DNA of 64,000 nt from Tetraselmis striata (Eukaryota; Chlorophyta; Chlorodendrophyceae; Chlorodendrales; Chlorodendraceae): contig VCJN01001770.1 in assembly GCA_006384855.1 (NCBI GenBank), positions 1 to 64,000 of the forward strand. The letters are read 5' to 3'. The notes beneath the pieces are model-generated. The model saw nothing but the letters and a program-made list of their open reading frames with translations. It had not been told where the DNA came from and did not search any database. The translations under genes were made by a program, and so were the position numbers. This document shows positions 7,388 to 59,665 of this stretch, piece by piece. How positions within the stretch are numbered: position 1 is the first letter of the stretch; each line of letters opens with the position of its first letter.

Positions 7388-9241
7388 GAAGAACAGCCCA
7401 GCACAGTGGAGATGGACATGGATGAGCAGCAAGAGCAGCCACAACAGACAGCCATCAGCGATCAGCACAACAAACTCATCCGGGAGAGACGGCCCCCGGC
7501 TCGGTATCAAGCCATGATGGCATGCGGCAGCATCTGCTTAGACCGTGACCCATCTGATCCCCAACCAGATTATGCCCGCTACCCTCCAGACCCTAGCGGC
7601 GAGAGCAACAACATGCAACAAAAATTTGCACTCTTGAGCGTTGCGGGCATACCTACGCCTCGCAACTTCAAAGAGGCGATGAGCCCTGAGTTCCGCGACC
7701 TGTGGGAACCAGCCATCCACAAGGAGTATGAGGGTCTGATGGCCAATCGTACGTGGGGACTGGTTAACTGCCCACCTGGTGCGACAATCCTACCCATCAG
7801 TGGGTTTTTGTAGCCAAGGCAGCACCCGATGGCACCCTGGACAAGGCGAAAGCCATGGCTATTGTATGTGGCAACTACCAGAAAGATGGCGACACGTGCA
7901 AGGAAACATACGCACCCGTCATCCGTATTTCCAGTCTGCGAGTCTTCTTCACCATTGTGGCCGCCATGCAGCTCCACCTCCGGCAGCTTGATGCTGTGGC
8001 TGCGTACCTCAACGCTTCCATTCCGGCAGATGAGTATATGTACATGCGACAGCTTCAGGGGTTTGATGATGGTTCTGGCAGAGTCTGCAGACTTCTCAAA
8101 TGTCTGTACGGCCTCCGTTTATCTGGCAAATACTGGTGCAAACTGTTGGCCATGTGGCTGCTCAGTGTCGGCTGGATCTAGTGCAAGGCATACCCATGCA
8201 TCTTCATCCTACGGCAGGGAGACATATACGCTGCTATGGGAGTCTATATGGATGACATGGAATTGGCTGGCAATGACGATACGTGGTTGGACAGCTTTGA
8301 GACTGACTTGCGTAATCGGTTCGTGGTCAGGAGGCAACACGACCCTTGGGTCATTGGGATGTCCGTGTCCTACGATCGACCCAACCGACGCATCACTCTC
8401 ACACAGACAGCCTACATCAAGGAGATTCTAGAGAGATTTGGCATGCTTGAATGCAAGAAGTCCGATGTGCCTATGGTGGCCGACTTCTTCAATCAGCCAC
8501 TCACCAGTGTCTCCGCATCACCTTTGATGGTTGCTGACGGTCGGTCCCAGTACGTGCGACTGATAGGCTGCCTCATGTATGTCAAAACTTGCACTCGACC
8601 AGACATCACGACATCACTAAGTATCATGGGCAGTGTTCAGAAAGAGCCGAGTGTGATGCACATGACAGCGCTTAAGAAGGTGTTACGATACCTGAAAGGC
8701 ACTATGCATCGTGGCATCACTCTGGGTGCCGACTCGGCTGACAACCTGCGACTGGTCGGATATGCAGATGCCGACTTCGCTGCCGACCTACTCCAGCGCC
8801 GATCTCGTGGTGGGTACCTGTTCCGTCTCGGAGATCACGGGGCATGCAGCTACAAGCCAGCTCTTCTGCCCACAGCGACGCAGGAAACTGGTGGCGGCAT
8901 TGCACAGTCGACTGTCGATGCCAAGACAGTGTCATTGATGTCAGGCGATCAAAGATGGCATTCACCTCAAAATGCTTGTCTCTGAGATCCTTGGCAGTCC
9001 GGTGCAACCACTCATCATGATGGAGGACAACCAAGGGGCGATCAGCTACGCCACAAACGCTGTCATCAGTGACATGACGAAACACATCGACATCAAGTGG
9101 CACTTTCTCAAAGACCATGTGAAGGCAGGCACAGTCAGGGTCAACTACATCGCCACCGACCTCAACACGGCGGACATGATGACCAAACCCCTGCCCTGTC
9201 CTGCAATGGAGAAGCACGCCCGCTTTGCTATGGGGTGGTGA
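7388..9241 (+). pseudogene. Ty1/copia pol remnant (reverse transcriptase and RNase H)
   Basis: This is the 3' half of a copia polyprotein. A linker ends in FKEAMSPEFRDLWEPAIHKE, the segment that normally precedes the RVT_2 reverse transcriptase. RT pieces follow in 7829-8181 (ETYAPVIRISSLRVF, QLDAVAAYLNA, CLYGLRLSGKYW). The catalytic YVDD-type box appears as VYMDDMELAG at about 8239-8268, then the connection region (YIKEILERFGM, VRLIGCLMYV) and RNase H (VGYADADFAADL, then EDNQGAISYATNA and KHIDIKWHFLKD). The frame is broken after 7811, by a stop at about 8179-8181, and near 8970. No gag, protease, integrase or 5' LTR is present upstream, so the copy is 5'-truncated and inactive. Confidence 0.88.
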
Positions 9242-20584: not shown

Positions 20585-21735
20585 ATGCCTACAAGCGGCC
20601 CTGACAGTAACCGCTTCCGGGGCCGCCTCTTACGCGCTGCGACAGCGTCCCTGGTGACTGATCCTCCAAGTGAGGGTCGCCTCGGTAAAGTCCGTAAGCA
20701 TTCCCCTGAGTCCTACGATTCCATGTTCCGCGTTGCCGCTTGCCGCCCATTTGACCTTCCGGCGGCTCCTGTCCTCTCCCTTGGCGAGCCATGCCCTTGT
20801 GCTTTTTGCTCCTCGGTACAAGGCATGCTGGCCCGAGGAAGTTTGCGTGGAATTCACCCCTTCGGCTTGGGCGGTCGCGTACGTTGATCACATGGCCCGT
20901 TGCTCTGGGGGCGACTCCAATCACGCCGCACACGAGTGGGCGGCACATGACCTTTCCGACGTTTGCCACGACGTGATGAAGTCCGCCCTGGGCGTGGGTT
21001 TCCATATCATCACGGACCCGTCGGTGCTTGTTTCTCTTCCGAAGGGCAGCGACGGCCGGCCGGCCGATGTTGGGCTTTTGCGTATTGTGGTATCCGCGGG
21101 AACACGGTTGCTGTCGATACCACCATTGCCCATATCCTAGGCGTGTCAAGCTCGGATCCAACGATTGCATGGCGGGCTGCAGAGCGCCGCAAAATCCAGA
21201 AGTATGACGAGGGTGTCCGAAACGCCGCCGGCATGCGTCGCTTTGTTCCTTTCGCCGTTTCCGAGTTCGGCTCGCTGGCCCCGCACGCTGAGGCCTTCTT
21301 GGTGGAGCTCGCGAAAGCTAGCCACACACACACCGGCCAGAAAATCGGCCAGCTCTTGTCTGCGTGGCGCCGCCGTTTCTCCTTGCTCATCAACATGGCA
21401 CATGCATGCCAACGTTCTTGGCGGGGTCGCGGCCGGGCGCGCGGCACGTGATGGTGCTCCAGCATCTGCCTCGCGTCGCTCGTCGGCATGTGTCGCTATG
21501 ACCCGGGTCATTGGCCGCAAGCGTCCTCGCCGCGGCTGATGGCCTACCCCGGGGGGGTGGTCCCTTTGATTCCAGGCAGCTTGGCGACTTCGTGGTTCCC
21601 TTGGCTCTCCCTTGGTTCTTGGCTCCATGGCCTCCTGCTCGACCCTGGTTTTAGGCTTATGTCTCTCTTTTGCTGACAACCTTTCATAGTTGCCGTTAGT
21701 TCTGTTTGTAGTGCGCATATGTTAAAGCCCTAATG
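20585..21735 (+). pseudogene. LINE-like retroelement 3' end (post-RT tail and 3' UTR)
   Basis: The first frame (20670-21140) reads AWAVAYVDHMARCSGG and ends RPADVGLLRIV. After a frameshift near 21080 the second frame continues VAVDTTIAHILG, AERRKIQKYDEGVRNAAG, FVPFAVSEFGS and AEAFLVELAKAS. This is the conserved tail (RPAD, VD-T, lysine helix, FVP-V-E-G) downstream of reverse transcriptase in algal non-LTR elements. The 3' UTR ends GTTAAAGCCCTAATGT followed by A7, as expected for target-primed integration. It is 5'-truncated and frameshifted, so not autonomous. Related truncated copies lie at 39661-40470 (minus) and 41060-41465. Confidence 0.7.
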
Positions 21736-21744
21736 TAAAAAAAT

Positions 21745-24354: not shown

Positions 24355-25105
24355 AAATGACGCCTATGCTTGCCTCGCACTGCAATCACCTGCACTAGAC
24401 AGTCAATGTAAATACACATGCGCGCTACGCGGTGTCCCCCTCTCCAGAGGGCCCCCTCTCCGATAAAGGCTTCCCTCCCTAGAGGGTACTACCCGTTGTA
24501 TCGTGGGCACGGTGTGGGCACCGCAAACACCTGCACCAGACACTCAGTGTGAATACACATACGCGCTACCATGTGTCCCCCTCTCCCGAGGGTCCCCTCT
24601 CTAGAGGGTCCCCTTCCCAGAGGGTCCCCTTCTCAGAGGGTCCGCTTCCCATAGTGGCGTCCCGACATGTATTAAACCCGTCGCTCTGCTCGCCCGCGAT
24701 CCCCAACCGTGCCATGTCGCTGCGCACTCCGCGGTCACTACTCTCAATACGGGCGACCCGCCCCTCACCCTCACTCCATCCGCGTTGACCTTGATATGCG
24801 TTCATCGTGGCGTCCGTTCCCATCATTCATCGCCATGTGTTGGTGGTGGTCCGCTCGGAGACTCGTCGTTGTGACCGGTGAGGGTGTCCCGCGCTTGCGC
24901 ACATTTGGCCACCATTCGGCACCCTTCCCTTCGACGCGTCTCGACGGCGTACAGCCAGGCAAGACTAGGTTAGGTCATAGCCCTGGACCCTATCAGTAGG
25001 CGATCGGGGTAACAACGGCGTACCGAGGTACAATTCAAAGCCTTTCCGCGCGACTGCACGCAACATAGCAACGCCCTCATCATAATGTCGTTTCCGTGTC
25101 TACAA
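23935..25105 (-). repeat. Inverted-repeat arm A (right)
   Basis: Reverse-complement partner of 21745-22925. Its outer end continues straight into arm B (about 24880-25965), so the bases 24880-25105 belong to both repeat pairs. Confidence 0.85.
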
Positions 25106-25965
25106 AAACAGTAAAAATCATGGATCCATAAATGGTCCCGGGCGGAAACTAACACGGTAGACAAGGTAAGCTAGCAAGATGACCGCACGTTGCTAACAAG
25201 GTGAGACCGCACCTTGAGATCGACTATGATCATCTTGTTACATGCCCCGCCCGGCCGGTATGTCGATGTAGTCCGGTCACCTCATAGTGCGTCCGCGGAT
25301 GCAACCCGCCCGAACTACTCGCCCCCTCGTGTGTACTACTCTTAGCGCACCACTGCTCGCCCGGACGCCCAATTGCCCATCATCTCCGCCCCGTTATGCT
25401 TCAACTAGTATCCGTAAGGCCCCCCCTCCGGTCTCCCCATTCGTCTTCTAGTATCTACCAATATCGACTGTGTTCGGAGGTGGGGGGGGGGGCGGGGGGG
25501 GGGGGGGGCGCGGATGGCGAGCGTGTAGTAGGCACGTTATGTCCGTATAGCGCCGACGTGGCGCTAACGACCTGCCGACCTCCCACCCGCACCTCGGCAT
25601 CATGGACGCGCGGGCAAGCAGTCACGAACTTTTGATTAGCCCATACGTCCGGGCGTATGTCTGGTGGACGATGTGGGGAGTCGCGGCCTATTGCGTCAAC
25701 TGATGGCCCGTCAACGCAGCACTGCCGGCTCGGCATGTCAATTCCCCATTTCCGCACTGCGTTGCTGAAACCATACATCCTTTGCCAGTATCTGTAAGCA
25801 CCCCCCCCCCCCCCCCCCCCACTTCTTCCCCTTCGTCTTCCAGTGTCTAGCCTGTCTACCAATATGGAATGTGCTCGCGGGTAAGATGGGGGGGGGGGGG
25901 GGGGGGGGCTTACTACACACAGTCGGACGGCGCGTGTGTAGGTCCGTGGTGTGATCGTGTCCATG
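24880..25965 (+). repeat. Inverted-repeat arm B (left)
   Basis: About 1.08 kb matched base by base by the reverse complement of 30188-31215, apart from scattered substitutions and different lengths of C/G runs. It contains two similar modules, each with a GTAAG donor-like site followed by C-rich sequence and a CTTCGTCTTCTAG or CTTCGTCTTCCAG acceptor-like site, then TACCAATAT. These read like introns of a multi-exon gene on the plus strand, though I could not assemble a protein from the exons. Confidence 0.85.
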
Positions 25966-30187: not shown

Positions 30188-31215
30188 CGCGCCGTCCGAC
30201 TGCGTGTAGTAAGCCCCCCATCCTACCCGCGAGCACATTCCATATTGGTAGACAGGCTAGACACTGGAAGACGAAGGGGAAGAAGTGGGGGGGGGGGGGG
30301 TGCTTACAGATACTGGCAAAGGATGTATGGTTTCAGCAACGCAGTGCGGAAATGGGGAATGGACATGCCGAGCCGGCAGTGCTGCGCTGGCGGGCCATCA
30401 GTTGACGCAATAGGCCGCGACTCCCCACATCGTCCACCAGACATACGCCCGGACGTATGGGCTAATCAAAAGTTCGTGACTGCTTGCCCGCGCGTCCATG
30501 ATGCCGAGGTGCGGGTGGGAGGTCAGCAGGTCGTTAGCGCCACGTCGGCGCTATACGGACATAACGTGCCTACTACACGCTCGCCATCCCCCCCCCCCCC
30601 CCCCCACCTCCGAACACAGTCGATATTGGTAGATACTAGAAGACGAATGGGGAGACCGGAGGGGGGGCCTTACGGATACTGGAAAAGGATGTCTAGTTGA
30701 AGTATAACGGGGCGGAGATGATGGGCAATTGGGCGTCCGGGCGAGCAGTGGTGCGCTAAGAGTAGTGCACACGAGGGGGCGAGTAGTTCGGGCGGGTTGC
30801 ATCCGCGGACGCACTATGAGGTGACCGGACTACATCGACACACCGGCCGGGCGGGGCATGTAACATGATAATCATAGTCGATCTCTAGGTGCGGTCTCAC
30901 CTTGTTAGCAACGTGCGGTCATCTTGCTAGCTTATCTTGTCTACCGTGTTAGTTTCCGCCCGGGACCATTTATGGATCCATGATTTTTAATGTTTTTGTA
31001 GACACGGAAACGACATTATGATGAGGGCGTTGTTCTGTTGCGTGCAGTCGCGCGGAAAGGCTTTGAACTGTACCTCGGTACGCCGTTGTTACCCCGCTCG
31101 CCTACTGCTAGGGTCCAGGGCTATGCCTGGCTGTACGCCGTCGAGACGCGTCGAAGGGAAGGGTGCCGAATGGTGGCCAAATGTGCGCAAGCGCGGGACA
31201 CCCTCACCCGTCACA
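30188..31215 (-). repeat. Inverted-repeat arm B (right)
   Basis: Reverse-complement partner of 24880-25965; see that entry. The C/G runs differ in length between arms, while unique sequence matches closely. Confidence 0.85.
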
Positions 31216-31239
31216 ACGACGACGGGGGGGGGGGGGGGG

Positions 31240-31545
31240 GGGGGGGCTTACGGATACTGGGAACGGATGTCTAGTTTAAGCATAACGCGGCGGAGAATGG
31301 CAATGGGGCGGCCGGGCGGGCAGTGGTGCGCTGGGGAGCGCGCCGGCGTGGCACAAGCGCGGACGAGTAATCCTTGGTCCGGGCGGGTTGCATCCGCGGA
31401 CGCACTACGTGGTGACCGGACTATACATCAAGACACCGGCCGGGCGGAGCATGTAACAAGATGTTCATGGTCGGCCACAAGGTGCGGTCACCTTGTTAGC
31501 AACATGCGGTCACCTTGTTAGCAACGTGCGATCATCTTGCTAGCT
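31240..31545 (+). repeat. Extra copy of the arm-B terminal segment
   Basis: Repeats 30660-30960 in direct orientation (CTTACGGATACTGG, GGGTTGCATCCGCGGACGCA, CACCGGCCGGGCGG). It ends with two tandem copies of a CGGTCACCTTGTTAGCAAC unit and CATCTTGCTAGCTT, directly before the 5' LTR of the copia element. Confidence 0.8.
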
Positions 31546-31559
31546 TCCCCTGTCTACCT

Positions 31560-31838
31560 TGTTGACGAACACTGGTCGAAGCAGATAATCAACTGGTCCA
31601 CTGGTCCATACCCCATATTTCTGACAAGTGTCCGACTGAACCTGAATAGCCTTTTATATATTGGAACCAGATCAAGAAGCATGAGAAGTGGACAGATGAG
31701 CAGATGGAGCGTGCGCCCCTAGCAAGGGCATCATGTGGATGAGATTGAATATAATGGGATATTTCTCATCATTTGCAAACAAAATATTCTGATCCCACAG
31801 ACTCTGTCTCAGCAGCAAGCTAAGAATTCTCCGAAACT
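31560..31838 (+). repeat. 5' LTR of the copia element
   Basis: Aligned by eye with the 3' LTR from TGTTGACGAACACTGGTCGA to TTCTCCGAAA. It lacks about 190 bases present in the 3' LTR between CCACTG and TACCCC. Roughly a dozen substitutions are visible over the best-aligned ~165 bases, so the insertion is not recent. Confidence 0.85.
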
Positions 31839-31913
31839 ATAGAGGTTATGGCTAGCTACACGACTCAAAGCGTCCCAAGCTTCTAGCTCTGCTGTTCAGT
31901 TCTTCGTGCATGT

Positions 31914-32061
31914 GTGCCTGCGTGCCTCGAGCTGTGTGCTCGCTTACTTCGTGCCAGCAGCTTCGCTGCTAAGGAGGGGAGGCGATGTGCCTCTCTCAAA
32001 CCTTTTCTGTCCACCTGTCAAACCCCTGGCCAGCTCTCTCTCGGCAAACCTGGACCTTTCC
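31914..32061 (+). other. Copia leader
   Basis: Sequence between the 5' LTR and the family R insertion. No clear primer-binding site or gag was identified. A short open frame (31914-32102) has no recognisable domain. Confidence 0.3.
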
Positions 32062-32620
32062 CTAAATTGAAATTGAAATTTGAATTGATTACAACGTGCT
32101 AGTTTGCTGTTCTCCACCGCCCAGACCGAGTTGCTCTTAGGGCCTGCCATCCCCTAACCATAGTAGGGAACACATATAGCGTAATTACAGCTCCGGCTTC
32201 CGGCCATCCTTCGTTTCCAAGCCCCGCTTCCTTCCATCACGTGATCATTAGCTGTGTTACTTTCGGATAACTACGGGTAGTCGCCAATACGAGCGACTAC
32301 CGCTAATTGGCAGTACGGGGATTACGAATGCAATACTCGCCCCACCCCTAAAAGGTTTTCCTATACATTGGCAATGCACCGGCACCGCGCAAGCAATCTT
32401 CGGTCGTCGTGCGTCTTGGCTCCACCTGCCGCCATCGCTGAAAATATCCCGCAGGTCGCGGCGCTGATCGCCCCACCACGCCGGCTGTGGCGGTCCGTCG
32501 ACCTCGGCCGCGGTCCGCCGATGCTGCCTCCATCTCGCCCGCCTGAGCTCTTGCGGTAGGATCCCCAAGGGGGTCTGGAGGGGAAAGGCGGGCACCAACC
32601 CCCCCCCCCCCCCCCCCCTC
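32062..32620 (+). repeat. Dispersed repeat family R, copy inside the copia leader
   Basis: About 560 bases matching 58735-59285. Both start AAATTGAAATTGAAATTTGA or the like, share CATAGTAGGGA, GCGACTA and GGGGATTACGAATGCAATA, continue with GCGTCTTGGCTCCACCTG and GCCATCGCTGAAAATAT, and end at a C tract after CCCCAAGGGGG. It has no obvious coding capacity or terminal inverted repeats. Confidence 0.85.
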
Positions 32621-33499
32621 GTGTCCCCGTGTCGTCGCTCCGTGGTCGGCAGGCAAATCATGCTCGCCCGCGCGCCGCTCGCCTCCGCAGCGCGCCTTCG
32701 TCGTTGTAGCCGCCGGTCCAGGGTCAGACCGAGCTGACCGCCTGCTGACTCCTCCCTGCAGCATGGCTGCGACTCGCTCAGGGCACCTTGGCTCCTGTCT
32801 CATGGCCCCTGAGTCGTTGCCATGCCCGGCCGCTCCGCCCCCGAACGCCCGCCCCGCCTTTAAGTGCCGGGCTCCTGTCTCCTCGCGCTCGCCGCCCTCG
32901 CCCGTTCTCACGGGACGGCTGAGGGTTTCCCGTGTGTTCCGAACGGGTCGGCCGCAGGGCGCCCCCGAACACTCCGCCGTACTTTCGCCGGGATTCGAGT
33001 GATTCGCAGGTGGAATATATACGGGTGGGGGGTACGCCAGATCTTCTGCAAGGTCGGTCGCGGGTCGTATACCGAGGTACGAGAACACGATTTTATTTCG
33101 AACAGCCCTCGCGAGTAGGCTTCCCCCTTCCGAGTCGTATAGACCCCCCCTCTCCACCCGTAGGCGGATCTCGGAGAGGCCGACGGAAGGCGGAGGTCGT
33201 ACAAGAATTAATTTTAGCAGCCCCCCGTACAGGGCTGCTGCCCGGCGGCGCCAGCAGGCGCTACGAGGACTACGAGTATTATTTTTAAAAGCCCCCCATA
33301 GGGCTTCCCGGTCGTCGCAGGATCCAAGGACCCGCCACAACCGGCCACCCCGCTCAGCCCCCTGCCGCACCCAGCCGGGTACGGGTCTTAGGGGTTACCA
33401 GCGCCCACCACGTGGAGGTGGGGGTGGTGCCGCCGGGCCTGCCGCACCCAGGATCCTCCGTCCGCTCCTAGTCGGACGCCGTATGGCGGCGGGCGCCAC
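32621..33499. other. GC-rich leader/insertion, no gene assigned
   Basis: Between the family R copy and the start of protein-like sequence. It contains small hairpins (for example GCAGCCCCCCGTACAGGGCT at about 33219) and long minus-strand open frames that I regard as composition artefacts. Confidence 0.3.
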
Positions 33500-33773
33500 C
33501 TTTCCCTACCTGAGATCCAGATCCCAGCTCTTCTGCCCCATTCTCAGCCTCACTGAGTTCCACTCTCTGATTGGGGCTGTGACAACCGATCCTCTCAACT
33601 TTGGCAAGCTCCCCCTGTCAGCCTCACACGATTGGCGTACCCACTCAGCCTCAGCCTGACAAAGTCTTCCCCGACTCTGACAACATACCGCACGTGGCCC
33701 CAGACAGCCTGATGATGACAAGGCCGTCTCGATTTGTCGCTGCTCCACCTCGCTGGTCGCGCGAAGCAATCCC

Positions 33774-35180
33774 AACACCCGTGCATTAGAACTTCACCGC
33801 CACGCCACTCGTGCCGCTGCCCGCACCTTCACAGCGTGGCCCAATGTCAGCCTCCCTGGGATTTCCCCAACTGCGCATGCTGTCATGCGCAACACATATC
33901 TGGACGACGCCGTGGACTCCTTTCGCCTCGTGCCCAGCGATGACATGTCCATTCGAAATCCATCGACGCTGCATGCAATTGCTCACGAGGGGGGTCTCAT
34001 ACTGTAACGCCGGGCTCTCCATGACCAAGAGCGCACGCCGTATCGCAATCGCCGCTCAGCTCGTCGCCTTCGGAAGCGCGACCCCTTTGCCATCGGAGGC
34101 GCCAAGCACGTTGCAGCCACCACCCCAGTTGTCATCACGTGGTCCCCTCCCAACGTTGTCGACCAATCGGAGGCTGCTCTTGCGGCCGCAGAGCAGCGTT
34201 GTTTCCTGGGAGAGGCAGTGCCACTACCGTCCATCCGTCACGTTCGTGCCGACCATGCAGCACTGGTACCCCACATCCACTCCATTTTGTCATCCTCTCC
34301 GCAGGACGGAGCCACATTTGGCGTCATCGACGGACTCTGTGCAGTCGGACACCGCATTGTTACCATCACACTCGTGGAGAATGGCGACCCAGTGCGTGCT
34401 GCCGGGATCCTGGAGCTCAACAGAGTCCGTGCGAAATGGATTGCGCTCATCTCATCTGATGCGATCGCCTATGCCTACGACCGCCTCCGCACTCAGGACG
34501 TCAAGCTCCTCACCACAGACATGTTTGCCGCACTTCCGCGTGTGGACCTTCTCGTGGCGACACCTCCGTGTCAGCCGTTCTCATCAGATGGGAGGAATCA
34601 AGGCATGCATGACCAGCGAACCAAACCCTTCTCTGCCGTCTGCCGTCTCATCAAGCCGCTGAACCGCGCACATATAGCAATATTACATACATACGTCATC
34701 GAGAATGTCGCTGGAGCCGGGCGCTTCCCCGCCATTCGCGCAGCCCTAGGGGACCATGTCCTGGCCCGCGCACACGAGCTTGGAATATCATCCCGCTGCG
34801 ACACCCTACTCTGAACCAACGCGCGCCACCCGGACGCCATGCAAGCCCACTACCATCGTTCGCTCCGTCGCCCAACCAACGTGGGCGATTTGTTTGCCAA
34901 GGGTTGCTTCGCACCGGAGTGGCAGGCTCCCGCCCACATGCGTCACAACAAGTTTGGCAAGTTTGTGTCCCGCAAGGGAGGCTTCGCGCATCGGATGCAT
35001 GGGTCCACCCCGGGCAACAGTATTTTGCTACACAATGGCGTGTATGAGGAGGCACCCACCGACATCAAATGCAGCTCTAGGGGCTTCGATGCCAATGCCG
35101 TCGACTTCCCCGAGTGTCCGCCGATCTTCGTTGGCGTATCATTGGAGCTTGTGTGGACTCAAACGTGGCGCGCTGGATGA
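33774..35180 (+). pseudogene. C5-cytosine DNA methyltransferase domain in copia element
   Basis: One phase holds the domain: about 33774-34004, TAA at 34005, open 34008-34811, TGA at 34812, open again to 35180. Motif I region: ATFGVIDGLCAVG (about 34311-34350). An Asp before motif IV: TTDMFAALPRVDLLVATPPC. Motif IV with the catalytic Cys (codon at 34569): PPCQPFSSDGRNQG, followed by DQRTKPFSAVCRLI. Motif VI: YVIENVAG (Glu codon at 34701). A motif VIII-like GISSR precedes the TGA. After it the phase continues HPDAMQAHYHRSLRRPTNVG, HNKFGKFVSRKGGF and FVGVSLELVW, a candidate target-recognition and motif X part. Such enzymes move a methyl group from S-adenosylmethionine to cytosine C5. The reading frame overlaps the protease frame by about 65 bases, as at a frameshift junction. 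The two stops mean the copy is dead unless they are read through. Confidence 0.8.
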
Positions 35181-35533
35181 TGGCGGGCATCTCCTCCGCG
35201 TCCAAGGACGAGAGCTCTCTTCCTAGCATTCACACCTCCCCCCACAAATGGATCTTCGACTCTAGAGCTACCTCACACATGGTGGCACGGTACGAGGACT
35301 ACTCCGACTATCAGACCATACCGCGCCGATGGATTAGCGGCATGTCCGCCTACGGTGTAGGTGTATATATTGATATGGATTGTACCAGTATACTGTATAT
35401 ATATAGTATATATATATATATATGGTATACTGGTACAATCCATATCAAAATGCGAGCCGTCAACGGCGACACATCCTGCAGCACCCTCCATAACGTTCTT
35501 CATGTGCCTAATCTCGCTTCCCATACCAAATAA
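35181..35533 (+). pseudogene. Copia aspartic protease region
   Basis: WIFDSRATSHMV is the copia protease active-site segment (DSGAT-type, here Asp-Ser-Arg instead of Asp-Ser-Gly), followed by the typical NVLHVPNLASHTK end. Between GMSAYGVG and the MRAVNGD strand sits a 79-base AT-rich hairpin that adds foreign residues. The Gly-to-Arg change and the insertion should abolish activity. Confidence 0.7.
35370..35448. mobile_element. 79-bp palindromic hairpin (MITE-like) inside protease
   Basis: Perfect 24-base inverted arms (beginning TTGATATGGATTGTACCAG and ending with its complement) around a TA-repeat loop of ~31 bases. It interrupts a conserved protease strand, so it was inserted after the element was coding. 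No clear target duplication is visible. Confidence 0.75.
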
Positions 35534-35613
35534 CGAGGTGCTTCGTCTCTTCAGTGCGCGGCAGGCGCAAGACGCCAATGCAGCCCTACAGATAGTCGTG
35601 ATAGCGCGCACCA

Positions 35614-35985
35614 GTGCCCATGCAGATCTCCGATGCCGTGACCATTCCCATCGAGAATGACGGGCGCGTATTTATCCTCCACAGTCACGTGCTCCGCAAG
35701 GGACGGCGTCAGCGTCATGGTAGTCCGGTGGACGCTGCCACAGCCCTCTCCGCAACACCCTCCAGCGCGTTTCCATCGGACAAACTGTTGTGGCATGCGC
35801 GCCTCGGTCACATCCACGGGCGCGCCATGCACCGTGTTACCAATGGGGGACCCAATGCCGACCTGCGTCATACCATCCTTCCGTTCTGCAAGTCATGCGC
35901 AATCGTCAAATCCACTGTGGCCCCGATGCCGCGCATGTGTCATGAGAAACCAATTGTGCCATTCTCTCTCGTTGGGAGCGACTGA
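35614..35985 (+). pseudogene. GAG-pre-integrase / integrase zinc domain
   Basis: LLWHARLGHIHGRAMHRV followed by ILPFCKSCAIVKS forms the H-H-C-C zinc motif at the N-terminus of copia integrases. The frame shifts before and after this block. Confidence 0.8.
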
Positions 35986-36524
35986 TGGGAGCTGCGCTCT
36001 CCTTCGCTACAAGGCCACACGTATTGCTGTGGGTACGTCGACGGCGCGATGTCCATGGTGTGTTTGTTCATCTGCAATTTCTGACAATGTGCTACCGGTA
36101 CTATGCGTTCATTCAACACCATGGTTGTCAGCTACAACCATTCGATCGCAACATTGCGTCTAGACAACGATACAGCCTTCCGCGGTCAAGCATATGTGTC
36201 CGCCCCCGACGCCCTAACCATTCGCCGCACATATGCAGCAAACACCATGCAGCCAGTTCCAAAATGGGCTGATGGAGCGCACCTGGCGCACCCTCAGCCA
36301 ATGGGCTCGTTGTATGCTGGACTGCGCCAGCCTCCAAGACACCTACTGGGAGTTCGCTATGTCACTCGCAGCCTACATATATAACCGCACCTTCCGCCGT
36401 GGAGTTCATGGCATTCCGCTCCACCTTGTGACTGGCGCCATCCCGGACTTGCGTCACCTCCGCGTGTATGGCTGTGATGTCTATGCGCACATTCCCGCAG
36501 TACCCGGCACAAGGCTGCCCGCCC

Positions 36525-36720: not shown

Positions 36721-36846
36721 TCATGGCCGTCTGCGGCCCCTTAGGAGGGGATGACTACAGAGTTAGGAGGGGCCACAGCCGCCAAGACATGAGGGGCTGC
36801 GCCCCGAGCAGTATTATGCCCTACCTGCTCGGCATCAACTAGCTCC

Positions 36847-37917
36847 ATGGAACTCCCACCCGCATGGAAGCCCACTCGCGTCTGCAACATGACAATACCA
36901 CCCTATGTTAGCGAATCCGACAGCTACAACGACAACGACAGCAACCCTACCGAGCACCACCGTGTACGCACTCCACCACCGCCTCGGCCACCAACAATGC
37001 CATCAACAGAAGGACCAACACCTCAGCCACCTACCCTAGCTTTACCTCCCAGCACCCGCCCGCAGCCCCTAGCTCAGACAATCGCACCCCCCGACTCCGC
37101 TGCAAACCTCAACCGCCCGCGGCGCAGCAGACATGCCCCCGTCGTATACGATCCCACCGATGACAGCACCGTACCACGCGGGGCCACCTACGCATCTATG
37201 GTTCAAGAAGACTTCATCCGCAACATCGACCCGTGTGAATGGGTACTACTGGCGGGCCAAGAACCTGGCGACCCGCTGACCTACACGGAGGCCATGAACT
37301 CGTCTTTGACTGCCTGGTGGCTGGAGGCAATGCACCAGGACTACAACTCGCTGAACTCAAGACGCACGTGGGAGCTGGTGGTCCTGCCCGGCGGACGCAA
37401 GGCTGTCAAGTCCAAGTGGATGTACAAGACCGAGCACAACTCGGATGGCACAACTGCAAGATACAAGGCCCGCGTGGTACCAAAGGGGTTCTCACATGTC
37501 CAGGGCATCGACTACACCGACACCTTCGCACCCACCGTGAAGTTCACAACCCTGCGAGTCATTTATTCCATTGCCGCCCACCATCGACTTCACATCGAAC
37601 ATACCGATGTGGACTACGCGTTCATGTACGCGGATCTGAGCGAGGAGAGATACATGGAGCAGCCCTGCGGCTTTGAGCAGTATGGACCCAATGGCGAGAA
37701 GCTGGTGTGCAGACTGAGGAAGGCCGTTCACGGTTTAAAGCAAGCACCCCACAACTGGCACAGGCTACTCAATGACTACATGAAATCACAACACTACTGT
37801 CGACAACTGCGAAACGACCATGGCGCCTACGTCTTCTGGAGCAGCGACGGCGTCAATCTGGGCATTATCGCAATCTACGTGGACGACGTCATCATTGTCA
37901 GCAACTCGTGCCCCTAG
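36847..37917 (+). pseudogene. Copia reverse transcriptase (RVT_2), largely intact
   Basis: A 356-residue frame. After a proline-rich linker come TEAMNSSLTAWWLEAMHQDY, RTWELVVLPGGRKAVKSKW, YKARVVPKGFSHVQGIDY, TFAPTVKFTTLRV, the first catalytic Asp region HTDVDYAFMYADL, RLRKAVHGLKQAPHNWH and the catalytic box IAIYVDDVIIVSN. The frame ends in TAG at 37915-37917 within the palm; the protein-like sequence continues in the same phase after the stop. Confidence 0.88.
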
Positions 37918-38853
37918 ATCGCCCACTTCAAGCAGGCTCTCGGAAAACACTTTCACATCAACGAGCTGGGCACCTGCTCATGGCTGTTGGGCATTAAGGT
38001 GGAGCATGACCAGACAGCCGGCGTGATCAAGATTCATCAGTCCAAGTACATCCATGACATGCGGGAGCGCTTTGGTATGAGCGACTGCACCCCCACACAT
38101 GTCCCAAGTACGATCCGAGGGCATCAACCGCACATGATGACAGCGCCACCATCACATACCGGAGCCTTGTTGGAGCACCGATGTACGCAACCGTTGCAAC
38201 ACGTCCTGACATCGCGGAGGCCGTCTGCCGCCTATGCCGATTCATGCCATCAACAACTCAAGCACACATGCTGGAAGATGCACGACACTGTCTCCGGTAC
38301 TTGGAAGCAACTCATGACCGGGGGCTGACTTTCGGAGGAGACTGCGAGTTTCTTCTTCATGCTTACAACGATGCTAACTTCCCAACAACGTATCCTAGTC
38401 AGTGCAAGTCGACCAGCGGTAAGTTATGTATTCTTTCTTGCAGGAGCAGCCGTAAGCTACCTATCCAAGTTTTAGCCATTGGTAGCACTCTCGACAACCG
38501 AGGCAGAGTATATAGCATTTTGCGTCGCATCGCAGGAGGCAATGTTCTTGAGGTAGATACTGTCAGAACCGGGATTCAGGCAGGACGGCGCAACAACAAT
38601 CGGAGAGGACAACCATGCATGTATTACAATCGCCACCAACGACGTGACCACAGCCGTGATAAAGCACATGGACATCCGACTTCACTTCGTGCGAGATCCA
38701 CAACGCTCTAAGAAAATCAAGGTGTACTATGTGGCCAGTGCTACCATGCTGGCTGACACCGTCACGAAGCCGCTTGCGTTCCGGCAGCAGTTTGAGGCCT
38801 TGAACTCGCGCATCATGAACTACAATATTGCACTTGCAACCAGTGAGGAGGGG
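37918..38853 (+). pseudogene. Copia RT connection and RNase H, frameshifted
   Basis: Reads FKQALGKHFHINELG, WLLGIKVEHDQ, YIHDMRERFGMSDC; then in another frame TRPDIAEAVCRL, HCLRYLEATHDRGLTFGG and AYNDANF (RNase H). The last frame (38644-38859) has IKHMDIRLHFVRDPQ and VYYVASATMLADTVTKPL, the standard copia C-terminus, followed by the polypurine tract. Confidence 0.85.
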
Positions 38854-39328
38854 TGTTGACTAACACTGGTCGAAGCAGGTGATCAATTGGTCCACTGAAG
38901 TGTAAGTGAGCCCATTTGGCTTATAGACAAATAAGGCCTGATGATAATATTCGTAATAGTGCAGTTTAAATTATGGCTACTGCAGAAATGATGGAATGTA
39001 GTAGTACTATCAAGTGACATATACTGGACCTGCAGAGCAAGACAGGTGTGAGCACGTGAAGACATGCCTCATATAACATTTGATCAAACATACCCCAGAT
39101 TTCTGACAGGTGTCCGATTGAACCTGAAGACCCTTTTAGATATTGGAACCAGATCAAGAAGCATGAGAAATGGACATATGAGCAGATGGAGCGTGCGCCC
39201 CTAGCAAGGGCATCATGTGGATGAGATTGAATATAATTGGACATTTCTCATCATTATTGTACTCACAATATTCTGATTCCAAAGACTCTGTCCCAACAAC
39301 AAGATAAGAATTCTCCGAAAATTTAGAT
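38854..39328 (+). repeat. 3' LTR of the copia element
   Basis: Starts directly after GAGGAGGGG. It contains a segment at about 38899-39088 that is missing from the 5' LTR. The right edge is set where the similarity to the 5' LTR ends (TTCTCCGAAA, A/C). Confidence 0.82.
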
Positions 39329-39329
39329 A

Positions 39330-39660
39330 ACTTGCTAGCTTACGCCCGGGACAGGCATCCAACAAGGCGATTATCTTGATTACCTATGAAGTCTATCTGA
39401 CGATGAAGAGTAATTTTTTAAATACGGTATATACATACTGTCCTACTAATAGCGTCGGGCCACATGGCTGCGTGTATGTGATGCATTTGTTTATACTCGA
39501 GGTAGGGTAGCGCTAAGGCAAAGTACTTTTAGAAACCTTGCCTCCGGTGAAATTTACCGACGAGCAGCTCGGGGATGCAAGGGTGAAGGCCTTTTCTTGC
39601 ACAAGGCGGCAGCCGCACATTGACACTACCCCTATAAGATTGCTTACATCAATGCTTTAA
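39330..39660. other. Short intergenic stretch
   Basis: 39330-39400 resembles the arm terminal repeat (GCATCCAACAAGGCGATTAT is the complement of a string at about 20445). The rest shows no gene. Confidence 0.4.
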
Positions 39661-40470
39661 CGTATGCGCACTACAAACAGAACTCAAAGCAACCATGAAG
39701 GGTTGCCAGCAGCAAAAGAGAGACATTGGCATGGAAACATTAGCATGGAACTAAGGGTTAAGCAGGAGGCCAGGGAGCCAAGAACCAAGAAAGAGCCAAG
39801 GGAACCAAGAAGTCGCCAAGCTGCCAAGGAACCAAAAAGTCAAGGGAAGCACCGAAGCCAAGGAACGACTAGAAAGACCGAAAGGGAAATAACATGAAAC
39901 CAATGGGGACCACCGCCCCCGGGTACTAGGCCATCAGCCGCGGCAAGAACGCTTGCAGCCAATGACCCGGGTCATAGCAACACATGCCGACGACGAGCGA
40001 CTCACGTGACGCATGCGCATGAGCACCATCACGTGCCGCGCGCGCCGCCGCGACCCCGCCAAGAACGTTGTCTACATGTGCCATGTCGATGAGCAAGGAG
40101 AAACGGCGTCGCCACGCAGACAAGAGGTGGCCGAATTTCCGGCCAATGTGCGTCTGGCTAGCTTTCGCGAGCTCCACGAGAAGGCCCCAGCGTGCGGGGC
40201 CATGGAACCGAATAACTCGGAGACGGCGAACGGATGAAAGCGAAGCATGCCGGCGGCGTTTCGGACACCCTCGTCAAAATTTTGGATTTTGTGATGCTCT
40301 GCGGCCCGCAATGCAGTCGTTGGATCCGAGCATGACACGCCGAGGATAGGGGCAATGGTGGTATCGACAGCAACCGTGTTCCCGGGGATACCACCATACC
40401 CAGAAAGCCCAACATCGGCGGCCGGCCGTCGCTGCCCTTCGGGAGAGAAACAAGCAAGAAATACCCCTAT
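39661..40470 (-). pseudogene. LINE-like 3' end, inverted truncated copy
   Basis: Minus-strand copy of the element at 20585-21735. It begins (at 39661, the 3' end) with the complement of GTTTGTAGTGCGCATA and holds the tail frames IQNFDEGVRNAAGM, FHPFAVSELFGSMAPHAG and, upstream, LVSLPKGSDGRPP. It is frameshifted and 5'-truncated. The outermost 3' poly(A) is missing. Confidence 0.65.
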
Positions 40471-41059
40471 CAGATACCTACCCCTACAAGAAACCTACCC
40501 ATATAAGCAAAGGGTGGGGGGTCTTAACACTTGGCGACATAAGGCTTTAAGAAACATAAATAAATTACGAGGTGAGTCTGTTTGTCTGTCTGTCTGTTGC
40601 CTACCTTCGGATCAGTTGCGCATAGATTATTAGATAAATCAAAAATATATCCGTTATAGATTCCGTGATAATTCCGCGCGGGCCAAAATAGCCGTCGCGC
40701 TTACCTGCTGCTGACTACCTGTACATGTATATGTACCGGTATGGGTACAGGTACCCGCCGCCCGGCCGCCGCCGGTCGGGCCGGTCGTCGCCGTTCGTCA
40801 GGTCTAGGGGGCGGGCATGGCGCGAAGCGCCGAGCCCGCCGCGTGGACCGGACCCGGACGCCGGACGCCGTCGTTCGTCCGTCGCCGGATACCGGACGGC
40901 CGTCGTCCGTCCGCCTCGCCGCCATCCGTCGACGGACGCCGGGCCCCGGGTGGGCGGGTCGGCGGACGCGGGGCTGTACAATGTAGCGACTACTACGATC
41001 GTCCCTTGAGGCTCTCCGGATTCCACACTCATGCAACCGGTCTACTTGTCTAATCGAAC
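40470..41059. other. GC-rich low-complexity stretch
   Basis: 40740-40980 is dominated by CCGTCG, GGACGCC and CCGGAC strings with internal symmetry; every frame is open on both strands because of composition. 40720-40755 has GTAC-rich short palindromes (TGTACATGTATATGTACCGG). I see no gene. Confidence 0.45.
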
Positions 41060-41465
41060 CAAAAAATCGGCCAGCTCTTGTCTGCGTGGCGACGCCCTTT
41101 CTCCTTGCTCATCAACATGGCACATGCAGACGACGTTCTTGACGCGGGGTCACGGCCGCGCGCGGCACGTGATGGTGCTCCTGCGCCTGCGTCGCGTCGC
41201 TCGTCGGCATGTGTTGCTATGACCTGGGTCATTGGCTGCAAACGTCCTCGCCGCGGCTGATGGCCTACCCCGGGGCGGTGGTCCCTTTGGTTCCCAGCAG
41301 CTTGGCGACTTCGTGGTTTCCTTGGCTCTCCCTTGGTTCTTGGCTCCCTGGCCTCCTGCTCGACCTTGGTTTCAAGCTTATGTCTCTCTTTTGCTGGCAA
41401 TCTTTCATAGTTGCTTTGAGTTATGTTTGTAGTGCGCATATGTTAAAGCCCTGATGTAAAAACAC
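41060..41465 (+). repeat. LINE-like 3' end, short copy
   Basis: Matches 21345-21735: CGGCCAGCTCTTGTCTGCG, then CTCATCAACATGGCACATGC, ending GTTAAAGCCCTGATGT and A5. It is truncated at the 5' side inside the tail domain. Confidence 0.75.
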
Positions 41466-51575: not shown

Positions 51576-54500
51576 ATGGATTTTACACGGGAGGCTAGCA
51601 AGTCCCACTTCGATCAACTCGCAAAATCTGTGACTCGTGGCGAAAATAGACGGATGGTCATTGATCCAAGACAGAAATGGGTAAGGGACATGTTTGCGCC
51701 CCACTCCACTGTGGCCATGTGCCCTTTTGTGTGCTACATATATATGAGCTGCAGATTGTTTTGGAGAACATTACGAACGTCTTCTCAAGCCGAAGCTTTG
51801 TTGCTGTGCTCTCAGGTGAGAGGATGGGATGCGGTGACGGGCGTGGCTCTGCTGTTCACAGCGCTGGTGACAATATACGAGGTGGCGTTTCTGGAGGGCG
51901 GTCTGAACTGTGAGTGCAAGTGAAGCCTGTACAGTAAGGGCAAGTGCAGGGATGCGCCACCCATGTAGAACCCACTACCCGATCTTACAACATGTGTGGT
52001 GTGATTTGCAGCGTTGTTCTGGATTAACCGTGGAGTGGATTGCATCTTCCTTGTGGACCTTATTCTGCAATTTTTCATGATGTTTTATGACGAGGAGGAC
52101 GACATCTGGGTCACAGACCAGCGGCGCATCTCGCTGACCTATCTCAAAAGCTGGTTTATGGTAGACCTTTTCTCTATTTTGCCCTTTGATGCCCTGGGCG
52201 TAGTGCTGGAGCAAGACAACTTGAACAAGCTGAAGGTGAGCTGTTTGCTCTATTGTCTCTGCTCCTCCTGCCTTGCCCCCCCCCCCCCCCCCCCCCCTTT
52301 CAGGCAGGCAGAGCCTCTCTCTTAGCTTTGCATATCCCCTCCCCCACCCCTCGACTCCCTCCAAACAGATAATCCGCATCATCAAGTTGCTGCGCCTTGC
52401 TAAGCTGCTGCGTGTGCTGAGGGCGGGACGCGTGTTCCAGCGCATGGAGGCGCACATCAACATAAGCTACAAGGCGATGCAGCTGATCACGTTTGGGCTA
52501 GGCGTCATGTTGTGCGCGCATTGGATGGTGCGCTGCCGGGTCCGCATGCTGGATCCACATGTATACCAACAGCTCCCGAAGTTACTGCTGACCACAGCTG
52601 TGCTGACTATTGGTCTTTGGTCTTGTCCTGGCTGCACCGCTGGCTGTTTCAGGCCTGCGCCCTCCATCTCTGCGTCGTTATTGAGGAGTGCACCGTGGCA
52701 TCGTACGAGGACGGGGATTGCGTTAACTGGGTGTACAACTACAACGCAAACGGCGGAAACGGCGCCCTGCTTTTGACCAATGAGGACGGCAGCTTTGTCA
52801 CCACCTCCACTGGCGGCGCAAAGGAAAACCTCGCCACCACGTACTGGACCGCCTTTTACTGGGCAATGATGACCATGTCCACTATTGGTTACGGTGACGT
52901 TACGCCACAGACAGATGTTGAGCGCGTCTACGTCACACTCGGTACGCTAAGCCCCTCCCCTGGGGATGCAGGCGCATGTGCCAGTCCCAGAAGACTGTTT
53001 AGTTTGATTGCGTAGCATTTGGCTTGTTGCATTGCACTCCCCCGCCTGCAGTGCATGTGGTGTCTCTCCATACTCACATCAAGGCCGCCAAGAAAGGCAC
53101 ATGGCGTCGCAGTACGCCTTGGCGCTCTTGCTTGCGGGTGGCTGCCTAACACAATGGGCTTTGTATGGCCGCAGGCATGGTTGTCGGGGCCTCCATCTAC
53201 GCTTACATGGTTGGTAATGTTTGCTCCATCATCGCGGGGATGAATGCGGGAGAGGAGAAGTTCCGTATGGAGGTGAGGTGCCAACCCTCATGCTGCTGCT
53301 GCTCTTGCTTTAGCAGGTGTAACAGGCGGCATCTAAGCCTCCCTGCCCACCTTCTGGCACAGATGGACAGCTTGAACCAGTTTATGGAGGCCAATGGGCT
53401 GCCGAAGGACCTGCGCAAGGAGCTTCGCGCCTTTTACCGGTACCGCAACAGCAATGTCACCATCCATGAGGGGCAAGACGTGCTAAAGACGCTAACGCCC
53501 CGGCTGCAGTCGTACGTGGCCGGCTACACCCATGCCTCGTGGCTGCAGCACACCGACCTCTTTCGCTCCTTCCCTGCCGACCTAGTGGTTGAGCTCTGCC
53601 TCAGCATGCGCGCTGAGGTGTTTACACCGGACGAGCCCCTGTTCTTGGAGGGCACCGGTTGTGACCGGCTCTACATCGTGGAGCGCGGCCTCGTGTGGTA
53701 CCGCGGATGCGTGTATGGGCGACCCAACATGACCAAGGAGGGCGTCGTCGAGGGCCGCCGTCCAGTCAGCCACTGGATTGGCATCCAGGACCTGAACTCT
53801 GTATCTGGCCTGCATCGCTTTAGCGCGCGGAGCATGACATACTCTGTGTCGCTTGTCATCCGTCGGGAGACTCTTGAGTCGTGAGTGCCCTTACTTCGGA
53901 GTGAACCTCTCCCCCATAGCCACTTCGTTGTTTACACCCAGGTTGCTTCCCACCAATCCTCTAACACAGTTTGGCATTGCCCCTTAATTGTTGTATGCGT
54001 ACTTCAGGACGATATCGCGGTACCCAGAAGTGGCACGCACATTTCGGCGCACACAGGTGAAGGCGGTCATTCGTGAGATTGTACTCCTGTACGCAAGGGT
54101 CATCCACGGCTTTGAGACAAACCCGACGCAAATGATCGACACGCTGTACCAGAGAGGTGAGGTGGCAAGGATTTGGATTGAGCAAAAGCGGAGCGTCATG
54201 GGATCGTGCTTTTTGCTCACTATTCATGTCTGACACCTGCCATGCTCTCCTGCAAGTGTGGTGGCCTGGATCGATTTAGTGCTGATAGCTGCGCAACCTG
54301 TAACCCGCTCCAGCTTCGCTGACCAACAGCGACAACTGGATCCTGAAGTTCAAGCTCGCGACAGTCATGGAGCTCATAATTTTCAAGTATGGTGTAAAGC
54401 ATGCCATCAGCGAGCGGATTCTCCGCATTAAGTGGGCGGCGGTCACTCTGCAGGTTCGGGCCAGCCCGCCCGAGTTGTGTATCTCCCCCCCCCCACTGCC

Positions 54501-58734: not shown

Positions 58735-59285
58735 CGGTTGAAACTGAAATTGAGATTGGTTACACCGTGCTAGCATGCTGCTCTCCGCCGCTCAGAGTGG
58801 GTTGTTCTTTTGGCATGCCATCTCTAACCATAGTAGGGAGCGCATAATTCAATTACATCTCAAGCTTCCGGCCGGCCTCTTTCGTCGTTTCCAAGCCCCG
58901 TGTCCATCCATCACGTCATCACTAGCTGTGTTATGTTCCGGATATACCCACGGGCGGTCGTCATTACGAGCGACTAATGCTAATTGGTAGTAGTACTGCG
59001 GGGATTACGAATGCAATAGTCGCCCACCCCCGACGAAGTAATGGTTTTTTGTACATCAAATATGCACTGGTGCCGCGCAATTTACGATCGCCGTGTTGCG
59101 TCTTGGCTCCACCTGATGCCGCCATCGCTGAAAATATATCGCAAACGGCGGCGCTGATCGCCCCGCCGCGCCGGCGACCGCGGTCCGCCGCTGCTGCCTC
59201 CACCGCGCCCACCTGAGCTCTTCGCGGTGGGACCCCCAAGGGGGACTGGGGGAAAGGTGGGCCATCGCCCCCCCCCCCCCCCCCT
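58735..59285 (+). repeat. Dispersed repeat family R, second full copy
   Basis: Partner of 32062-32620 with the same start, landmarks and C-tract end (after CCCCCAAGGGGGACTGG). Differences are scattered substitutions and short indels. Confidence 0.85.
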
Positions 59286-59665
59286 CCCTCCATGCCTCTT
59301 TTCGATATCTCCTCTCTACTTCCTTGAAGTGGCGCTCTTCTAAGCATCGGCACGAACGGATGAACCGTAAACCACCCCCACTGCTCATGTATGCGTTCGA
59401 CAGTTTAAACCCATGACTGCGGTACCACTTCAACCTACGATAGTTTGGCCGTTGTTTCCATTTATACTACAAAGGGCACACAACAACCCTCATTCGCATG
59501 TACACGCAAGTGTGCGAGTGATGACGCGCGGCGGGGCGTACCAGGCAGCCCTTGAACCTCAGCCTTGCTATGCAAACCCGTACGCTTCCAACAATTATGG
59601 GATAACGGCTGGTGACCTATCCCGTGCCACTGTTCTTATTCTTACACCCACCCCGCACGAAGCGT

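What the first reader, a model, noticed from the sequence alone, without database searches (positions are those of the whole stretch)
33774..35180. Cytosine DNA methyltransferase carried by a Ty1/copia retrotransposon
Seen: between the copia 5' LTR and protease, one phase gives PPCQPFSSDGRNQG, DQRTKPF and YVIENV in the order and spacing of C5-MTase motifs IV and VI, with a plausible motif I before and a motif VIII-like GISSR after. Known: LTR retrotransposons that captured cytosine methyltransferases have been reported in a few algal and dinoflagellate lineages, but they are rare. Inferred: the element could have methylated its own copies or host DNA, affecting silencing. No gag is recognisable, so the enzyme may have replaced or been fused to gag. 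The copy is disrupted by stops at 34005 and 34812.
Basis: partly seen in the sequence, partly recalled or inferred. Interest (0 to 1): 0.88.

Follow-up and report, generated by a model that had tools for sequence, protein, structure and literature searches.

The report
DNA methyltransferase inside algal jumping gene
A decayed copia-type retrotransposon, probably from a green alga, carries a cytosine methyltransferase inside its own polyprotein, and better-preserved relatives show the enzyme between the capsid and protease parts, so this kind of jumping gene brings along its own enzyme for marking DNA or RNA.

Summary
Window 33634-35190 (+) encodes a complete but broken C5-cytosine methyltransferase (MTase; Pfam DNA_methylase E=5.9e-10, above the curated cut-off), directly upstream of a copia protease and between LTRs about 90% identical. 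It belongs to the element: four EukProt clusters (22 member sequences; names jgi/Tetstr1, read as the green alga Tetraselmis striata) carry Gag with a zinc knuckle, MTase and protease in one predicted protein; three of the four also carry reverse transcriptase. They are 77-78% identical to the window. A metagenomic ORF, 46% identical in the MTase, has the same MTase-protease fusion, so the arrangement reaches beyond one family. DNMT-carrying retrotransposons are known (LINE and DIRS in Symbiodinium, Gypsy in Klebsormidium). Different here are the Copia superfamily, the probable chlorophyte host, the position between Gag and protease, and an orphan MTase clade. The MTase is nearly as conserved as reverse transcriptase, which suggests it matters to the element. 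Activity and substrate (cDNA, host DNA, RNA, primer tRNA) are not shown. The window's own genome could not be searched; the tool did not complete.

The parts
31560..31843 (+). 5' LTR (lacks about 190 bp present in the 3' LTR)
   Evidence: 44 nt at 90.9% and 239 nt at 90.0% identity to the 3' LTR; ends read by eye
31844..31851 (+). GGTTATGG, possible primer-binding site for an initiator-tRNA half molecule
   Evidence: Sequence; the comparison with Drosophila copia priming is recalled, not tested
31852..33633 (+). Unrelated DNA where relatives have gag and linker; includes the dispersed repeat 32067-32620
   Evidence: No gag found: best E 0.09 on the opposite strand; repeat matches 58738-59290 at 75%
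33634..34226 (+). Linker between Gag and MTase, decayed
   Evidence: tblastn of P0002 residues 595-640; 121 of 170 identical to P0001 over 33714-34226
34227..35190 (+). C5-cytosine methyltransferase domain, motifs I to X, broken by a stop and a frame change
   Evidence: PF00145 E=5.9e-10; 78% identity to P0002 over 453 columns starting at 33762; last motif; motif numbers are recalled
35243..35368 (+). Start of copia protease (WIFDSRATSHM)
   Evidence: PF22936 Pol_BBD E=8e-9, above cut-off; 35081-35368 is 78% identical to P0001
35367..35451 (.). AT-rich palindrome inside the protease-integrase region
   Evidence: Self-match on the opposite strand, 90.7%
35605..35985 (+). gag_pre-integrase region
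   Evidence: PF13976 E=5.9e-7, just above cut-off
36245..36496 (+). C-terminal part of integrase
   Evidence: 92.9% identity to P0001 over 84 aa; SH3_retrovirus E=3.3e-5 in the surrounding ORF, below cut-off
36793..38853 (+). Reverse transcriptase and RNase H, several frames
   Evidence: PF07727 E=6e-44; 86% identity to P0001 at 37195-38076 and 84% at 38653-38856
38845..38853 (+). Polypurine tract GAGGAGGGG
   Evidence: Read by eye
38854..39327 (+). 3' LTR; flanks TACCT before the 5' LTR and TAACT after this one agree in 4 of 5 bases

Best explanation
This is a dead, gag-less copy of a Ty1/copia retrotransposon family whose polyprotein is Gag (CCHC) - linker - C5-cytosine MTase - protease - integrase - reverse transcriptase/RNase H. 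Shown: the domain order in relatives, the LTRs, the MTase motifs and the damage in this copy. Inferred: because the MTase sits between Gag and protease in one polyprotein, it would be made with Gag, packed into the virus-like particle and act on the nucleic acid inside. I think it most likely that it methylates the element's own cDNA before integration (about 0.5). Methylation of the packaged RNA or of the priming tRNA is next (about 0.25). Action on host DNA, or a role without catalysis, takes the rest.
For: One predicted protein holds zf-CCHC and DNA_methylase above cut-off in 4 of 4 Tetstr1 representatives, RVT_2 in 3 of 4 and SH3_retrovirus in 3 of 4; they stand for 22 member sequences and are 94-99% identical to the first. 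A metagenomic ORF, P0008, has DNA_methylase and Pol_BBD both above cut-off at 46% identity in the MTase. The PPCQ and ENV residues are kept in P0001-P0004, P0008 and P0009. Window against P0001: MTase pieces 80.7-88.4% identical, RT 87.0%, linker 71.2%. The fold model matches C5-MTases. De novo CG methylation in yeast was reported for the SymbioDIRS-Dnmt3 enzymes (PMC5890265).
Against: No activity was tested. Pol_BBD is below cut-off in the 4 Tetstr1 proteins, and those models skip parts of pol, so no single intact gag-MTase-pol reading was seen. Motif I departs from the usual form. MTase and pol regions show no CpG loss (1.01 and 0.88) and none of 12 transitions between the LTRs is at a CpG, so no footprint of self-methylation was found in the body. 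By sequence the nearest solved enzyme is DNMT2, a tRNA methyltransferase, level with HhaI, so RNA remains possible. For the SymbioLINE and KnitGypsy enzymes, yeast expression gave no methylation, which the authors call inconclusive.
Confidence: 0.8

Rival explanations
1. A host or viral MTase gene fragment was inserted by chance into or beside an ordinary copia element; there is no inherited fusion.
For: The window copy is a pseudogene with a nested insert just upstream.
Against: 22 member sequences in Tetstr1 and one diverged metagenomic ORF repeat the same order. The MTase end joins the protease with the same residues in P0001 and P0008.
Confidence: 0.03
2. The enzyme is an RNA methyltransferase that acts on the element's RNA or on the tRNA primer in the particle.
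For: DNMT2 is the best or tied-best solved relative. de Mendoza et al. discuss RNA methylation for the LINE-borne enzyme. The possible half-tRNA priming site is read by eye.
Against: The match covers only motifs I-VI, and HhaI, a DNA enzyme, ties. The fold comparison puts DNMT3A/3B ahead.
Confidence: 0.25
3. The MTase is no longer catalytic and serves a structural or nucleic-acid-binding role in the polyprotein.
For: Motif I is unusual (CAGATFG, CCGGMLAG). That captured enzymes can serve without catalysis is general knowledge.
Against: PPCQ and ENV are kept in P0001-P0004, P0008 and P0009, whose MTases are as little as 31% identical. Only the fragment P0005 lacks them in part.
Confidence: 0.12
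4. The Tetstr1 fusions are gene-model artefacts that join neighbouring genes.
For: The models skip parts of pol at similar places, as automatic models do over broken elements.
Against: In the window DNA the MTase end and the protease lie in one frame within 35111-35350, and P0008 has both domains in one ORF.
Confidence: 0.05

Closest known systems
KnitGypsy-Dnmt3 of Klebsormidium nitens (PMC5890265; parts 1-4 of 7 read)
   Same: LTR retrotransposon of a green-lineage alga with a C5-MTase inside the polyprotein, several copies
   Different: Gypsy, not Copia; MTase in the Pol ORF and of Dnmt3 type; here between Gag and protease, and of unsettled type
SymbioDIRS-Dnmt3 and SymbioLINE-Dnmt of Symbiodinium (PMC5890265; parts 1-4 of 7 read)
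   Same: Retrotransposon-borne C5-MTases in many copies
   Different: DIRS (tyrosine recombinase) and LINE, not Copia; the paper says Symbiodinium Copia elements lack any DNMT domain
DNMT3 members embedded in 'LTR Copia and DIRS' elements (PMC12344493; section 5 and passages seen)
   Same: Names Copia as a carrier of a DNMT
   Different: One sentence that cites the 2018 paper, on streptophytes and dinoflagellates; 'Tetraselmis' has 0 occurrences in the main text; supplements not seen
DNMT2 and bacterial HhaI / HaeIII
   Same: C5-MTase motifs and fold
   Different: Only the N-terminal half aligns by sequence; a profile of the C-terminal half finds nothing in PDB up to E=10

Membership tests
C5-cytosine methyltransferase (PF00145) | Score above Pfam's curated cut-off | tested here: met
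   39.5 against 22 bits; 40.8-44.9 bits in P0001-P0004
C5-cytosine methyltransferase (PF00145) | PCQ and ENV motifs, with later motifs in the usual order (motif names recalled) | tested here: met
NCBIfam dcm (TIGR00675) | Score above NCBIfam's curated cut-off | tested here: not met
   36.2 against 100.65 bits for the broken window piece; intact relatives not scanned with it
Ty1/copia element | LTRs and a pol with protease, integrase, then RVT_2 reverse transcriptase | tested here: met
   the integrase core itself was not matched, only gag_pre-integrase and a sub-threshold SH3
DNMT-carrying retrotransposon (de Mendoza et al. 2018) | DNMT and retrotransposon proteins in one element, in several copies | tested here: met
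DNMT-carrying retrotransposon (de Mendoza et al. 2018) | Purifying selection on the DNMT (Ka/Ks) | tested here: inconclusive
   Only protein identities were available: MTase 80.7-88.4%, RT 87.0%, linker 71.2%
DNMT-carrying retrotransposon (de Mendoza et al. 2018) | Methylation activity | not testable with these tools
   Needs expression and sequencing
DNMT3 | Clusters with DNMT3 by sequence or fold | tested here: inconclusive
DNMT2 | Clusters with DNMT2 by sequence over the whole domain | tested here: inconclusive
   Best or tied-best sequence match, but only over motifs I-VI

The most novel reading that the evidence does not exclude
A separate, old lineage of Copia retrotransposons, present in chlorophyte algae and in unidentified environmental eukaryotes, carries its own active orphan MTase packed with Gag. 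It marks its cDNA (or its RNA and primer) inside the particle, so that new insertions arrive already methylated. This would be an acquisition independent of the LINE, DIRS and Gypsy cases.
Probability: 0.35. Interest if true: 0.82.

Novelty: new variant of a known kind. Interest (0 to 1): 0.66.

Why it matters
Retrotransposons are the usual target of cytosine methylation, and here a mobile element carries such an enzyme itself. In what I read, this was described from dinoflagellates (LINE, DIRS) and a charophyte (Gypsy). A Copia case in what is probably a chlorophyte, with near-identical and less decayed relatives in a named alga, makes the purpose of such capture testable: whether the particle holds methylated cDNA, RNA or tRNA, and whether new insertions are born methylated. 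The position next to Gag points to the particle as the site of action.

Tried and rejected
Short protein query (268 aa): none of 7995 scored candidates reached E 0.001; full-length polyproteins lie outside the length rule. A long single-frame query, scored on the MTase region, solved it.

Viral contigs: the window piece matched 1 stretch and A2 matched 46, none a confirmed relative. A4 matched 31 stretches, 3 confirmed: short phage-like MTases, to which tblastn of P0001, P0008 and P0009 gave no convincing match outside the MTase. Genome contigs: 31 stretches, 1 confirmed, a bacterial MAG, over 32 residues.

Structure job 1: mean pLDDT 44.8, not used. Profile of the C-terminal half against PDB: 0 hits up to E=10. 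DNMT1, CMT, DRM and DNMT5 are not named among the PDB sequence hits nor in the 50 fold rows shown; this is no proof of absence.

Tree placement beside phage MTases (94/84, very long branches) is not trusted; it holds no DNMT1/2/3/5, as none were at hand.

Methylation footprint: LTRs are CpG-poor (o/e 0.45 and 0.37; 6 of 785 and 0 of 469 windows outside the element are as low), but GC-matched windows weaken this (3 of 65; 0 of only 7, median 0.65). Of 12 transitions between the LTRs none is at a CpG (a few edge columns there are misaligned).

The genome search on the window's own assembly was asked 22 times with the same request and never answered. So copies in the window's own genome and the identity of the host were not tested.

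In print: eight paper searches were answered. In their listings and in the passages I opened I saw no Copia-borne cytosine MTase in a chlorophyte. Supplements, and papers outside the library, were not seen.

Full report
Observation. The open stretch 34008-34811 (+) scores 39.5 bits (E=5.9e-10) against Pfam DNA_methylase, cut-off 22, and matches six PHROG families named DNA methyltransferase, four of them with E under 0.01. NCBIfam's dcm model hits below its cut-off. Against solved structures the best single-sequence match is human DNMT2, E=1.7e-4, over the N-terminal motifs.

The element. LTRs lie at 31560-31843 and 38854-39327, about 90% identical; the 5' copy lacks about 190 bp. Between them on the same strand are Pol_BBD (protease region), gag_pre-integrase, a sub-threshold integrase SH3 match and reverse transcriptase (RVT_2, E=6e-44). 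GGTTATGG after the 5' LTR would fit priming by a half molecule of initiator tRNA, which I recall from Drosophila copia (sequence). A polypurine tract precedes the 3' LTR, and the pol stop codon lies in the first bases of the LTR. An 85-bp AT-rich palindrome sits in the protease-integrase region.

Relatives. A long single-frame query with X at stops, scored on the MTase region, gave 4 proteins with E up to 10 among 7994 scored candidates, all from EukProt with names beginning jgi/Tetstr1, at 77-78% identity over 100% of the region, standing for 1, 5, 14 and 2 member sequences. I read Tetstr1 as Tetraselmis striata (recalled; taxonomy). They are 98, 99 and 94% identical to the first. Pfam finds zf-CCHC and DNA_methylase above cut-off in 4 of 4, RVT_2 in 3 of 4 (not P0004) and SH3_retrovirus in 3 of 4 (not P0002); Pol_BBD is seen in 4 of 4 but below its cut-off. 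The order is Gag with the knuckle (277-293; 248-264 in P0004), linker, MTase, protease (GATSHM), then integrase end and RT where modelled. The models skip parts of pol at similar places; whether these are introns or artefacts is open.

Gag. P0002's first 480 residues find nothing convincing in 31840-34100 (best E 0.09, on the opposite strand) nor in the whole window (best E 1.3). Homology begins at P0002 residue 595, window 33634. So gag is lost in this copy, and about 1.8 kb of other DNA, with a dispersed repeat in it, stands in its place. The MTase did not replace gag in the family.

Reach of the family. A profile of the MTase domain gave 42 proteins with E up to 10 among 7996 scored. The first three are further Tetstr1 pieces. 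Then come P0008 (E=1.8e-37, 46% identity) and P0009 (6.1e-24, 31%), both from ENA, then 37 further C5-MTases from 6.5e-5 on, one of them a Symbiodinium protein (P0043, E=2.6). P0008 carries DNA_methylase and Pol_BBD, both above cut-off, and GGCVDSNVAKW before the protease, where P0001 has GACVDSNVARW. P0009 shows no pol domain, so it supports the MTase clade but not the fusion. The six element MTases form one clade (100/100) on a very long branch in a tree of 46 rows.

Conservation. Window against P0001, identical over aligned residues: linker 121 of 170, MTase I-IV 96 of 119, VI-VIII 84 of 100, TRD-IX 61 of 69, X plus protease start 70 of 80, integrase end 78 of 85, RT 254 of 292. The MTase is held nearly as tightly as the RT and more tightly than the linker. 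Without DNA of the relatives this suggests, but does not show, selection on it while the family was active.

Footprint of methylation. MTase and RT-RNase H are not CpG-depleted (1.01, 0.88). The LTRs are (0.45, 0.37), lower than nearly all windows outside the element, but few windows match their GC content. Of 12 transitions between the LTRs none is at a CpG. This neither shows nor excludes self-methylation.

Literature. PMC5890265, parts 1-4 of 7: DNMTs in LINE and DIRS of Symbiodinium and in Gypsy of Klebsormidium, Copia of Symbiodinium without DNMT, CG methylation in yeast by SymbioDIRS enzymes. PMC12344493, section 5 and passages: one sentence on DNMT3 in LTR Copia and DIRS elements of streptophytes and dinoflagellates, and orphan DNMTs with scattered distribution. 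PMC12477816, passages: a different methyltransferase in a DNA transposon of Ectocarpus. Passages of PMC9998398, PMC6338049, PMC11453091, PMC10120064 and PMC9033089 added no Copia case. Eight answered searches showed no Copia-borne cytosine MTase in a chlorophyte, in their listings or in the passages I opened.

Limits. The window's genome was never searchable. The host is inferred only from the element's closest relatives and could be another Tetraselmis or a neighbour.

Noticed in passing
window 7475-9193 (+): A second, distant and decayed copia element (RVT_2 E=3.8e-7, just below cut-off; 27-44% identity to the Tetstr1 pol). The window's MTase found no second match in the window, so none near it.
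   Followed up: partly
window 52404-53012 (+): Ion-channel domain (Ion_trans_2 E=1.1e-11) with GYGDVTP, probably a host potassium-channel exon; the next ORF, 53150-53881, has no Pfam match up to 0.01.
   Followed up: no
window 31560-31843 and 38854-39327: LTRs are CpG-poor with TpG/CpA excess while MTase and RT regions are not; possibly past LTR methylation, but GC-matched controls are few.
   Followed up: partly
P0001-P0004 (Tetstr1 proteins): Gene models stop at the same point after the protease (GAYAVA in P0001 and P0003) and resume at different places in pol; Drosophila copia is recalled to splice gag-protease away from pol, so real splicing is worth a look.
   Followed up: no
window 35367-35451: AT-rich palindrome of about 85 bp inside the pol region, perhaps a small inserted element.
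   Followed up: no
window 39644-41459, 21025-21738, 30283-31563, 24863-25415: Further dispersed and inverted repeats around the element, not classified.
   Followed up: no
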